Part shown: positions 19,792 through 30,504 of the stretch, piece after piece
Numbering within the stretch: the stretch's first letter is position 1
Layout: the number at the start of each line of letters is the position of its first letter
Assembly: GCA_024228495.1 (NCBI GenBank)
Contig: JAAETJ010000081.1
Span: forward strand, 1-34,364
Source: a bacterium
GTDB lineage: Bacteria; Pseudomonadota; Alphaproteobacteria; Rhizobiales; JAKIUO01
Direction of reading: 5' to 3'
Length of the DNA: 34,364 bases
Notes under the pieces: generated by a model
The model's database searches: none
The model's input: the letters and a program-made list of their open reading frames with translations, nothing else
What the model was told of the DNA's origin: nothing
Made by a program: the position numbers and the translations under genes

Positions 19792-19868
19792 GGTCCCGTA
19801 GCTCAGTTGGATAGAGCAGGAGCCTTCTAAGCTCAAGGTCGCAGGTTCGAATCCTGCCGGGATCACCA
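19792..19868 (+). tRNA. tRNA-Arg (anticodon TCT)
   Basis: A 77-base cloverleaf including encoded CCA. The acceptor GGTCCCG pairs with CGGGATC with a G-T wobble, the D arm is GCTC-AGTTGGATA-GAGC, the anticodon loop is CTTCTAA giving anticodon TCT, and the T arm is GCAGG-TTCGAAT-CCTGC. The anticodon stem GGAGC/GCTCA has a G-A mismatch at its outer pair (27-43); the other four pairs are good. It reads the AGA codon. Confidence 0.95.
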
Positions 19869-19869
19869 T

Positions 19870-20431
19870 TATTTTCAATGTGTTAGAGTATTTTCCACAT
19901 TCTGGATATATTCTTGGGGTTCCTCCGGGGTTCCAATGGAAAAATGACTCTTACATTTTCGGTGATGGTCAAAGCCTGTACTCCTTGCCTTTTTGAGTAG
20001 CTTTTTTACTTTTTTCTATCGGACAAAAGACGGTTTTCTCGTTCTCTCCCCGGATTTCGTCCATTACAATGCCCCTACCAACACCAAAGTAAGGGGTGGA
20101 ATTTACGCCCGTACCCTCGATAATGGCTATAAATCAAGTTATTGACAGTGTCGCCCCCCGCCGGGCTGACGCCCGACTTCGACCCAATATTGGGTCTATA
20201 AACTGACTGTCCTTTAAATAAAGGGCAGACCGAGCGGCGGCCGGCAGATGGTGTGTGCTTGCAGCAAAACATACCAGCCTTGCCCTGATACTCTTGTCTT
20301 CCCTATTTGAGGATGTATGGCAGTGTTGTTTCTGACCGGATTTTAGCCGGGTATCGGGTCGAAGTCGGCCGTCAACCCTTCTGGAATTTTCTTGCGATGA
20401 CGTCGCCAATTGCTCCTTGTATTTTCAATGT
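19870..20431. repeat. Segment next to tRNA-Arg bracketed by a 12-bp direct repeat
   Basis: TATTTTCAATGT occurs at 19870-19881, one base after the tRNA CCA, and again at 20420-20431. Between the copies there is no convincing gene: a minus-strand frame ending near 19979 runs for about 45 codons without a start codon or known motif. After the second copy the base composition falls to strongly AT-rich. The arrangement resembles the scar of an integrated element, but the repeat lies outside the tRNA itself and 12 bases could be coincidence. Confidence 0.35.
20163..20378. repeat. Nested inverted repeats with an embedded perfect palindrome
   Basis: A 27-base arm at 20163-20189 matches the reverse complement of 20352-20378 at 24 of 27 positions (shared core CCGACTTCGACCC). 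Just at the inner edge of the left arm is a perfect 16-base palindrome, GACCCAATATTGGGTC (20181-20196). An outer pair, CGCCCCCCG near 20152 and CGGGGGGCG near 20436, nests around it. The roughly 300-bp structure is locally GC-rich in an AT-rich surrounding and has no convincing open frame. It may be a non-autonomous mobile element or palindromic intergenic repeat. Confidence 0.6.
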
Positions 20432-20785: not shown

Positions 20786-21106
20786 ATGACTGTTGGAAGC
20801 CTAAAAAAACTCGTTGCATGGAAAAATACCCAACCGGGGGCAACACCCAGCCTCCATGTTATTGGTAAAATAACAGCACCAACCCCCTGTCATGATGCTA
20901 TTGGCGTACACACTGGTGATATGAAAACCAACCCACCTGTTTACCAACTACTTATTAGTCTGCATGCTCAACCGGGGAACTGCATTAAGGTGTTGAGTGA
21001 TGTCGATTTTCATTATGTTGAACACAATTATGCCGGTATTCATGAAGAGATAGAAGTCCTTACCGACAGCGATAAACAAAGAGTCAAAGTTACGACCGTC
21101 TCTTAG
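20786..21106 (+). CDS. Small protein of unknown function, predicted beta-rich
   Basis: A 106-aa protein starting at an ATG with a good ribosome-binding site (AAAGGATATTGCT). I do not recognise the family firmly. The sequence alternates short hydrophobic strands: SLHVIGKITAP, YQLLISLHAQPG, CIKVLSDVDFHYVEHNY and IHEEIEVLTDSDKQRVKVTTV, which suggests a small beta-sandwich. There is no signal peptide or membrane segment; two Cys are present. It begins the accessory cluster after the tRNA and is followed 49 bases later by the next gene on the same strand. A 390-base AT-rich leader precedes it. Its position next to the I78-domain gene suggests a shared role. Confidence 0.65.
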   Translation: MTVGSLKKLVAWKNTQPGATPSLHVIGKITAPTPCHDAIGVHTGDMKTNPPVYQLLISLHAQPGNCIKVLSDVDFHYVEHNYAGIHEEIEVLTDSDKQRVKVTTVS

Positions 21107-21155
21107 GTATTTCTATTAAATCCCAACATGAATCTCAGTAATTGAGTAGAATTAA

Positions 21156-21575
21156 ATGATAACGATCGCCATAACAGCTGATTTCAGATTCGATGCTAAC
21201 GGCACTGTTTTAGGGCCTGAATTTGAGCGCGCCAATTTCCATTTTATCGATAAAAACATTGCCAGCGGCTTTCCCAGTTCTGTAAATCAATCACAAAACG
21301 GCCGCGGCCTTAGATTTGATAGAAGCGGATTGGAAGTCGTTTTGCCTCTGCCACGCGATAAAGTTGAATTCCGTATCGGCAATTTTGCCGAGCCGTGCGA
21401 GATATTCGCCTACAATAATAACAGAGACCTTATCGCGCAAAAAACTGCGTCGTTCACTAACACTTACAGCACAATGACGATTGAAGCTGAAAAAATCGTA
21501 AAGCTTGTTTACTTGAAAGGAGGAAACGAACCAATCATTCAATGGATTACGATAACCGCCAATGTTGAAAGTTAG
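21156..21575 (+). CDS. Hypothetical protein, predicted beta-rich, unknown function
   Basis: The 139-aa product has no signal peptide, membrane helix or motif that I recognise. It begins MITIAITADFRFDANG and ends IIQWITITANVES, with hydrophobic-polar alternation throughout and regions such as EFRIGNFAEPCEIFAYNNNRDLIA and TMTIEAEKIVKLVYLKGG, so an all-beta or jelly-roll-like fold is likely. The ribosome-binding site is weak (GAGTAGAATTAA before the ATG), so translation may depend on the upstream gene. Coding strand, spacing and AT-rich codon use match its two neighbours. Confidence 0.6.
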   Translation: MITIAITADFRFDANGTVLGPEFERANFHFIDKNIASGFPSSVNQSQNGRGLRFDRSGLEVVLPLPRDKVEFRIGNFAEPCEIFAYNNNRDLIAQKTASFTNTYSTMTIEAEKIVKLVYLKGGNEPIIQWITITANVES

Positions 21576-21586
21576 TTTTTATGTTT

Positions 21587-21624
21587 CCCTTCTTCTCTCA
21601 ATCTACAGCTTAAAAGAAGAAGGG
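21587..21624. other. Perfect 10-bp stem-loop between the second and third accessory genes
   Basis: CCCTTCTTCT (21587-21596) pairs exactly with AGAAGAAGGG (21615-21624) across an 18-base loop. No U tract follows on either strand, so it is not a standard terminator. It sits 11 bases after the stop of the 139-aa protein gene and 36 bases before the start of the I78-domain gene, where it could set relative expression of the two, for example as a processing site or partial terminator. Confidence 0.5.
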
Positions 21625-21660
21625 ATTTGGTATTATATCATTTCTATTCGTGAGGTAACA

Positions 21661-22176
21661 ATGTCAAATACTGTTTGGATTTGGAACGATGATGGAACGC
21701 GCCAATGTGAAGACGGTACAGGTGTATCGCTGGATGATATGCAGAAGGAATTGGAAAGCATAGGCGCCAAGGTCTTAAACGCCGAAAAACGCACGCATTG
21801 CAGGTTTATAACTTCGGTTTGCGGTGCCCCAACGGGCAGTGTGAATGCTTACGAAGTTACTGAAGAGGATTGGGAAAAACTCAAGGGAGGTTTTGTAGGG
21901 ACTTTAGGTTTTAAGTTATGGGACTGTGCGGATATAAAAACACCCTCCCCGACAGCCATTAAATCTATGGAAAAACTTCTCGAAGATGGTCAAATCCCTT
22001 GGCCGTGGGCACAAATATCCTCTGTCGCGAAAACGCCAGTCCTACTTCGAGAAATCATCGGACGCCCTTGTCGCTGCTATCATAAGGGAGATGCATTGAC
22101 AGAGGACTTTAGGCCTGATCGTGTCAATATCGAATTGGATCAAGAAAATCGCATCCTTGACATCTGGTTTGGATAG
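21661..22176 (+). CDS. Cytoplasmic protein with C-terminal peptidase inhibitor I78-like domain
   Basis: The 171-aa protein starts at an ATG preceded by GAGGTAAC. The last 40 residues, with LREIIGRPCRCYHKGDALTE followed by FRPDRVNIELDQENRILDIWFG, match the I78 inhibitor pattern of 'G-x-x-x-R-x-x-x-x-G-D-x-x-T-x-D-x-x-P-x-R-x-N-I-x-x-D'. The first 120 residues form a separate domain beginning TVWIWNDDGTRQCEDGTGVSLDDM and containing SVCGAPTGSVNAYEVTEEDWEKL, which I cannot assign. The domain order and lack of a signal peptide are unusual, since I78 proteins are generally small and exported. Six Cys are present, including CRC in the inhibitor part. The frame is open from 21562, but upstream codons overlap the preceding gene and the hairpin. 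Confidence 0.75.
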   Translation: MSNTVWIWNDDGTRQCEDGTGVSLDDMQKELESIGAKVLNAEKRTHCRFITSVCGAPTGSVNAYEVTEEDWEKLKGGFVGTLGFKLWDCADIKTPSPTAIKSMEKLLEDGQIPWPWAQISSVAKTPVLLREIIGRPCRCYHKGDALTEDFRPDRVNIELDQENRILDIWFG

Positions 22177-29262: not shown

Positions 29263-30504
29263 ATGCTGTCATTTTACAAATCCATTTCCCATAACTTCGT
29301 CACCGCAGTATTGCTCACTTTCCTTTCCGCGCCAGTTATTGCCGCGCCAGATGACAAACGTAAAACAGTTGCGAGCGAACAATCCGATCCAAGAACCGAT
29401 GAGTTAGAGTATGAGCGCTCGAAACGCTTGCTCTCGGCCATTGACGAGATATTGAAAGATACCGCAACTATCCGTCAAGATGCGCGCAAGCTCCCCAGCA
29501 AACATGAATACTCCATTATTACCCCTCCATGGATCGAGACCAAAGAAGACCGCCAACTAAAGGTCAACAAACTATTAGATTCGGCTCTGGAAATTGTTAC
29601 CGAGGTTCCCATTGTTGACCTGCAAAAAAAACTGCGCAACAACCGCACCAATATAAAAAAAATGGAAGATCAAATCGCCGTCTTGCGTGAGAAACAGCTC
29701 GATGCTCCAACTGACGGTTTTCTTCCCGGCTATGTCGTCGATACCGTTGCTTCTATCGATGAGAAAATCGCCGATATCAACACAAGGATCGCTGGCAACA
29801 AGCAGCAGATCATCAAGATAAAAAAGAAAATATCCGACGGGTTGAAAAAAAGTGGCGTGGAGATCAAGGAAGCTCAGCTCGATATTCTGCTCGGCAGCGT
29901 CATCGGCGGCGATCTGGTCAAACTCGTTGCTGCATTTGAAGCCGCACGGGCGATTGATGACCGACTTAGTTTTTTGATGGATCGAAACGGTGAAAACCTA
30001 ACCGCCGCTCGGCGCTATTTCGCCATGCATGCGTCCCTGTTTGCTCTCCTTGTACATGCACAAGAGTTGGTACTCGATAAAATTGACGCGATTTATCTGC
30101 CCCGTCTTGGCGCCATAATCAAAGACATCAGACAAGCCCGACGCGAAACCTTTCAGCTGCTGCGCACTCACAATCGCAGTGATCAGCGTAAGACACTGCG
30201 AGCCAATCTCAAATCGCAGACTTTTTCTGAAAAAGTCGCCAAGACCTATCGCAACTATCTGTTGACGCAGCGCGATCAAATGTCCAAAGCACGCCAGCGT
30301 ACACTCAAGGATCTACACATCGCCGACAATACCTACCTTACGGTCGAAGCGAGTTTTCAGCTACGGTCCTTGATCAAGGATGCCAGCACCAGCTTTGAAG
30401 CGATCCGCAAACTGGAAGCCCCCGGGTTCGATAATGTGTTTCGCAACAAGGACTTGAAGCGTGAATTTGAGAACCTGACGAACAAGCTGACGCCAACTTC
30501 CTAG
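29263..30504 (+). CDS. Exported coiled-coil protein of unknown function
   Basis: A 413-aa protein with a Sec signal (hydrophobic VTAVLLTFLSAPVIAA, residues 13-28). The rest is strongly helical and charged: a long heptad-like region around LRNNRTNIKKMEDQIAVLREKQLD and IDEKIADINTRIAGNKQQII, then a more compact part with LDILLGSVIGGDLVKLVAAFEAARAIDDRLSF and further helices. There is one Gly-rich break but no recognised domain or metal motif. Ribosome-binding site is poor (GGAG twelve bases upstream). It stands alone between the IS relic and mgtE, which converges from the other strand. I cannot assign a role; a periplasmic scaffold or secretion-related function would fit the architecture but is guesswork. 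Confidence 0.7.
   Translation: MLSFYKSISHNFVTAVLLTFLSAPVIAAPDDKRKTVASEQSDPRTDELEYERSKRLLSAIDEILKDTATIRQDARKLPSKHEYSIITPPWIETKEDRQLKVNKLLDSALEIVTEVPIVDLQKKLRNNRTNIKKMEDQIAVLREKQLDAPTDGFLPGYVVDTVASIDEKIADINTRIAGNKQQIIKIKKKISDGLKKSGVEIKEAQLDILLGSVIGGDLVKLVAAFEAARAIDDRLSFLMDRNGENLTAARRYFAMHASLFALLVHAQELVLDKIDAIYLPRLGAIIKDIRQARRETFQLLRTHNRSDQRKTLRANLKSQTFSEKVAKTYRNYLLTQRDQMSKARQRTLKDLHIADNTYLTVEASFQLRSLIKDASTSFEAIRKLEAPGFDNVFRNKDLKREFENLTNKLTPTS

What the first reader, a model, noticed from the sequence alone, without database searches (positions are those of the whole stretch)
20786..22176. Three-gene cluster of unknown function with a cytoplasmic I78-domain protein
Three consecutive small genes, none with a signal peptide, two predicted all-beta and the last carrying a C-terminal I78 inhibitor-like domain behind an unassigned Cys-containing domain. 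They are AT-rich, sit immediately after a tRNA-linked repeat region and have no metabolic link to neighbours. Candidates are a protease-inhibitor based defence or stress module, or a cargo of a lost mobile element. This is the most likely place for an undescribed system in this window.
Basis: partly seen in the sequence, partly recalled or inferred. Interest (0 to 1): 0.6.

Follow-up and report, generated by a model that had tools for sequence, protein, structure and literature searches.

The report
Two-domain I78-type protease inhibitor gene
A small bacterial gene encodes a probable serine-protease inhibitor that joins a known inhibitor domain (I78) to an undescribed domain; one of its two neighbour genes belongs to a family found beside it in another genome, while the other neighbour has no detected relatives, so this looks like a new inhibitor architecture rather than a proven three-gene system.

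Summary
The three genes are there: P1 (20786-21106), P2 (21156-21575), P3 (real start 21661, to 22176). The I78 call scores below Pfam's cut-off alone (18.7 vs 23.6 bits) but holds: a profile of five other I78-type domains finds P3 at E=9e-20, profile-profile probability is 99.5%, and the best PDB relative is the elastase inhibitor AFUEI, then potato-inhibitor-I proteins. The inhibitory-loop residues match: Thr147(P2)-Glu148(P1)-Asp149(P1')-Arg154(P6'). The P3 N-terminal half is an uncatalogued domain with conserved cysteines, found alone in secreted or lipoprotein form in other Proteobacteria, fused to I78 in three genomes, and in Bradyrhizobium altum in a gene just downstream of a Kazal inhibitor gene. 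P1 belongs to a sparse uncatalogued family; a member lies right after the P3 homologue in one other alphaproteobacterium (E=3e-8). P2 is an orphan. None of the four genus-mates searched has any of the three genes, and synteny with them breaks at the tRNA-Arg 3' end. Most likely: a cytoplasmic two-domain serine-protease inhibitor with a companion protein, in an accessory region. A three-gene system, and defence, are not supported by direct evidence.

The parts
20786..21106 (+). P1, 106 aa, cytoplasmic-looking member of an uncatalogued family (secreted/lipoprotein and leaderless forms elsewhere)
   Evidence: Family by profile search; no Pfam/NCBIfam/PHROGs/PADLOC match; a relative is encoded right after the P3 homologue in G164 (hmmsearch E=3.3e-8; hhalign 91.7%)
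21156..21575 (+). P2, 139 aa, orphan ORF
   Evidence: No homologue in 101 relatives, 385 class genomes, plasmids or viral contigs; no family or PDB match; weakest codon score
21586..21625 (.). 19-nt inverted repeat between P2 and P3, possible transcription stop or processing site
   Evidence: 84% complementary arms, 2-nt spacer; predicted hairpin, not significant against shuffles (z=-1.31)
21661..22176 (+). P3, 171 aa, two-domain I78-type inhibitor (start corrected from 21562)
   Evidence: Full-length homologues in G053 (45% identity) and G164 (49% identity) with the same architecture; ribosome-binding site GTGAGGTAAC
21661..21927 (+). P3 N-terminal domain (residues 1-89), uncatalogued; conserved C16, C54, G55, T58, G59; predicted beta-alpha-beta-beta-alpha
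   Evidence: Alignment A5; no Pfam match in this region; AlphaFold model, about 69-87 mean pLDDT over residues 21-50 and 61-70
21997..22020 (+). Linker with P-W-P-W motif (residues about 113-120)
   Evidence: PWPW or PWPF in all three fusion homologues; the B. altum N-domain protein ends WPLPWPFPW
22048..22173 (+). P3 I78 domain (residues about 130-171), reactive loop G143-D-A-L-T147-E148|D149-F-R-P-D-R154-V-N156

Best explanation
P3 is a leaderless, two-domain serine-protease inhibitor. Its C-terminal I78 domain presents a canonical, substrate-like loop whose scissile bond would be Glu148-Asp149: the loop enters the protease active site, P1 Glu148 sets specificity (perhaps a Glu-preferring S1- or S8-type protease), and Thr147, Asp149 and Arg154 brace the loop so it is barely hydrolysed. 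The N-terminal domain is a separate module with conserved cysteines that probably helps dock, position or stabilise the inhibitor. P1 is an accessory protein that travels with P3 in some genomes; P2 is probably unrelated or strain-specific. The locus is accessory DNA. Shown by computation: gene structure, I78 homology, loop residues, N-domain family, P1-P3 adjacency in two genomes. Inferred: inhibition itself, protease class, role of the N-domain and of P1, cytoplasmic site of action.
For: A profile of five other I78-type domains (no P3 member in it) finds window P3 at E=9e-20, G053 at 1.4e-13 and G164 at 5e-11 among 6,535 ORFs; hhalign 99.5%; the P3-family profile's top PDB match is AFUEI (E=2e-5), then flax and pumpkin potato-I inhibitors, aligned through the reactive loop. 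[quoted passage not shown] P8' is Asn, as in AFUEI. P1 differs among the fusions (Glu, Arg, Met), as expected for specificity tuning. The N-domain is linked to two unrelated inhibitor types: fused to I78 in three genomes and just downstream of a Kazal gene that passes Pfam's cut-off in B. altum. The P1 family lies beside P3 in G164.
Against: No protease target identified and no protease gene within the cluster. Single-sequence Pfam scores of all three fusions fall below the gathering cut-off (18.7, 15.5, 22.1 vs 23.6). The I78 part of the model is low confidence (pLDDT below 50), so the loop geometry was not confirmed. P1 Glu is unusual beside the Gln or Arg of the other bacterial I78 domains compared, so the loop could have another role. 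Conserved cysteines suit an exported protein better than a cytoplasmic one. The P1-P3 link outside the window rests on a single genome.
Confidence: 0.55

Rival explanations
1. P3 is an immunity or control protein: it keeps in check a protease toxin or protease effector of the same cell or of competitors and phages (defence or anti-self-damage module), with P1 as adaptor.
For: Leaderless inhibitor; patchy distribution (2 of 130 order genomes, the window's own included); homologues beside mobile-type genes: terminase small subunit in G164, group II intron reverse transcriptase and an MPTase-PolyVal metallopeptidase in G053.
Against: No serine-protease or recognised toxin gene next to P3 in any of the three loci; no PADLOC or PHROGs match; no known defence genes seen around it; no phage homologue.
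Confidence: 0.15
2. P3 acts outside the cytoplasm like its single-domain relatives (exported by a non-classical route or released on lysis) to neutralise proteases of competitors or predators.
For: Single N-domain proteins carry signal peptides or lipoboxes by eye (L013, L034, L067-L069, Acinetobacter pittii plasmids L042); several I78-only proteins look exported; conserved Cys pair.
Against: All three fusion proteins start M-S/A-N with no signal peptide and a plausible ribosome-binding site.
Confidence: 0.15
3. The I78-like domain is a degenerate, non-inhibitory protein-binding module, and the three ORFs are a chance cluster of accessory genes left by rearrangement.
For: P2 is an orphan; the locus lies downstream of a synteny breakpoint at the tRNA-Arg 3' end; sub-threshold Pfam scores; none of the three genes in the four genus-mates searched.
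Against: Key loop residues and the C-terminal IWFG are conserved across three divergent fusions; P1-family adjacency in G164 would be an unlikely coincidence given the rarity of both families.
Confidence: 0.15

Closest known systems
MEROPS I78 / Pfam PF11720 inhibitors (example with structure: AFUEI, PDB 3w0d)
   Same: Same loop pattern G-D-x-[IL]-T-P1-[DE]-[FY]-x3-R-[VL]-N-I and flanking strands
   Different: AFUEI is a 68-residue protein purified from A. fumigatus, i.e. a single short domain (PMC8954713); P3 has an extra N-terminal domain, a P-W-rich linker, no signal peptide, and Glu at P1
Potato inhibitor I family (PF00280; CMTI-V, LUTI, eglin c, CI-2)
   Same: P2 Thr, P1' Asp and P6' Arg shared; CMTI-V and LUTI matched by the P3 profile
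   Different: P8' is Asn instead of Arg or Trp; score below the PF00280 cut-off (14.3 vs 24.5)
Kazal-type inhibitors (PF00050)
   Same: Neighbour of the N-domain gene in Bradyrhizobium altum
   Different: Unrelated fold and sequence; none seen near the window cluster
Tyrosinase-adjacent P1-family proteins (L030)
   Same: Leaderless P1-family member encoded directly upstream of a tyrosinase (PF00264)
   Different: No tyrosinase near the window cluster

Membership tests
I78 peptidase inhibitor (PF11720) | Passes the curated family model on its own | tested here: not met
   18.7 bits vs cut-off 23.6; the two homologues also fall below
I78 peptidase inhibitor (PF11720) | Homology to I78 domains by profile methods | tested here: met
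   E=9e-20 with an independent profile whose five members all match PF11720, the first above the cut-off; hhalign 99.5%; AFUEI top PDB hit
I78 peptidase inhibitor (PF11720) | Canonical reactive-loop residues (P2 Thr, P1' Asp/Glu, P6' Arg, P8' Asn) | tested here: met
   T147, D149, R154, N156
I78 peptidase inhibitor (PF11720) | Inhibits a serine protease | not testable with these tools
   Needs enzyme assay
I78 peptidase inhibitor (PF11720) | Small single-domain architecture, as in AFUEI (typical, not strictly defining) | tested here: not met
   P3 has an additional N-terminal domain in all three homologues; the G157 and G335 I78 proteins are also longer than one domain
Known anti-phage defence system (PADLOC) | Match to a catalogued defence protein | tested here: not met
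   0 families for P1-P3
Integrated element at tRNA-Arg | Duplicate of the tRNA 3' end at the far boundary and an integrase | tested here: not met
   No second copy of the tRNA tail in the window; no match of 16 or more bases with up to 2 mismatches in C995:24000-42500. No integrase noticed by eye in the ORF list; not searched by profile

The most novel reading that the evidence does not exclude
The N-terminal domain (C16...C54-G-x-x-T-G) is itself a new class of protease-binding or inhibitor domain, widespread as periplasmic lipoproteins, and P3 plus P1 form a leaderless double-headed inhibitor module that protects the cell from an intracellular protease effector.
Probability: 0.12. Interest if true: 0.65.

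Novelty: new variant of a known kind. Interest (0 to 1): 0.36.

Why it matters
The N-domain has no significant match in the Pfam, NCBIfam or PHROGs scans made here, yet occurs in Alpha- and Gammaproteobacteria, including small Acinetobacter plasmids, and is tied to two unrelated inhibitor families. That makes a testable prediction: it binds or helps to inhibit proteases. Leaderless I78 inhibitors would also raise the question of what intracellular serine protease needs restraining.

Tried and rejected
Start at 21562 for P3 (rejected: overlap with P2, no ribosome-binding site, not shared). P2 homologues in relatives, class, plasmids and viral contigs: none. P1-P2 homology: none. First half of the G164 neighbour protein as a P1-family domain: not supported (hhalign 3%); only its second half is. 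Phage or viral homologues: none. Integrated island with tRNA attachment duplicate: no duplicate found; the leuA that follows the tRNA in relatives lies on another contig beside an IS21-type istA-like fragment, named from its sequence by eye, so a rearrangement is as likely. Fold search with the P3 model: no match at E<=0.001, only weak ferredoxin-like alpha/beta hits (S6, ACT-like). P1 single-sequence model: pLDDT 40, not searched further.

Full report
Observation. The window is one whole contig (G000:C80) of a 5.1-Mb, 1254-contig genome. Three same-strand ORFs lie at 20786-21106 (P1, 106 aa), 21156-21575 (P2, 139 aa) and 21661-22176 (P3, 171 aa). Codon scores support P1 and P3 and more weakly P2. 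GC dips only modestly.

I78 domain. Alone, P3 scores 18.7 bits against PF11720 (cut-off 23.6). Three stronger tests settle the homology. A profile of five I78-type domains from other loci, all of which match PF11720 (the first at 36.9 bits, above the cut-off), finds P3 at E=9e-20 and both full-length homologues. Profile-profile comparison gives 99.5% probability. A profile of the three P3-type domains finds the elastase inhibitor AFUEI as its best PDB match at E=2e-5, followed by flax and pumpkin potato-inhibitor-I proteins, aligned through the reactive loop. The loop reads G-D-A-L-T147-E148|D149-F-R-P-D-R154-V-N156. [quoted passage not shown] P1 is Glu here, Arg in G164 and Met in G053; the five single I78 domains compared have Gln or Arg.

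N-terminal domain. Residues 1-89 match no Pfam family. Profile searches find the domain alone in secreted or lipoprotein form in Alpha- and Gammaproteobacteria and on small Acinetobacter pittii plasmids. Signal peptides and lipoboxes were judged by eye. It is duplicated in a secreted Bradyrhizobium altum protein that ends in a P-W-rich tail like the P3 linker. That gene begins 118 bp after a secreted Kazal-type inhibitor gene that passes the PF00050 cut-off (22.2 vs 21 bits). In a second Bradyrhizobium (L035) an IS21-like insertion separates a Kazal-like gene (sub-threshold) from a broken N-domain gene. AlphaFold gives beta-alpha-beta-beta-alpha for this part with moderate confidence; the C-terminal part is low confidence. 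No PDB fold matches at E<=0.001.

Conservation of the cluster. Among 100 relatives, 384 other class genomes, 129 other order genomes and the scans of the genome-contig collection, full-length P3 homologues were found in only two other genomes: G053 and the MAG OFTM306 (held as G164 and as L033). These searches sample each rank and overlap in part. In G164 the gene right after P3 (ATG about 94 bp downstream) encodes a 238-aa protein whose second half belongs to the P1 family (hmmsearch E=3.3e-8 with no member of that locus in the model; hhalign 91.7%, with P2 as a negative control at 0.15%). The P1 family is sparse (7 other genomes in the class sample), with lipoprotein-like forms and leaderless forms, one of the latter directly upstream of a tyrosinase. 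P2 has no detectable homologue. So P1 and P3 are associated; P2 is not shown to be part of anything. In the four genus-mates searched, none of the three genes was found.

Location. The genus-mates share the metallopeptidase and tRNA-Arg with the window, and similarity ends within a few bases of the tRNA 3' end. In all four, leuA, a transporter and trmFO-like genes (named by eye) follow, in G003 after two extra genes. In this genome leuA lies on contig C995 beside an IS21-type fragment. No duplicated tRNA tail was found, so this is a breakpoint in accessory or rearranged DNA, not a demonstrated island. G053's P3 lies between two group-II-intron reverse-transcriptase-type ORFs (one confirmed by Pfam) and beside an MPTase-PolyVal metallopeptidase gene; G164's lies beside a phage terminase small subunit.

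Conclusion. P3 is most likely a leaderless two-domain I78 serine-protease inhibitor, a new architecture within a known kind. Inhibition, its target and the roles of the N-domain and P1 are inferred. Defence is neither supported nor excluded.

Noticed in passing
window 19792-19872: Synteny with the genus-mates breaks at or within a few bases of the 3' end of tRNA-Arg(TCT); relatives continue into leuA, which in this genome sits on contig C995 next to an IS21-type fragment.
   Followed up: partly
L034:1926-3101: Bradyrhizobium altum: secreted Kazal inhibitor gene followed 118 bp later by a secreted double N-domain gene ending WPLPWPFPW; in L035 an IS21-like insertion separates the two genes.
   Followed up: partly
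L030:1480-3286 (and remnant in L029): P1-family gene directly upstream of a tyrosinase gene (PF00264, E=1.2e-33).
   Followed up: no
L042:3887-4201 (NZ_CP131868.1): N-domain lipoprotein-like gene on small Acinetobacter pittii plasmids, annotated hypothetical.
   Followed up: no
L017:5195-12089: G053 P3 homologue lies between two group-II-intron-type reverse transcriptase ORFs and near MPTase-PolyVal and RelA/SpoT-domain genes.
   Followed up: no
window 20163-20189 / 20352-20378: 27-bp inverted repeat (89%) flanking 162 bp downstream of the tRNA; no other copy in the window at up to 3 mismatches.
   Followed up: partly
window 29263-30504: 413-aa protein with an apparent signal peptide and coiled-coil-like sequence, no Pfam match, downstream of the hydrogenase genes.
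   Followed up: no
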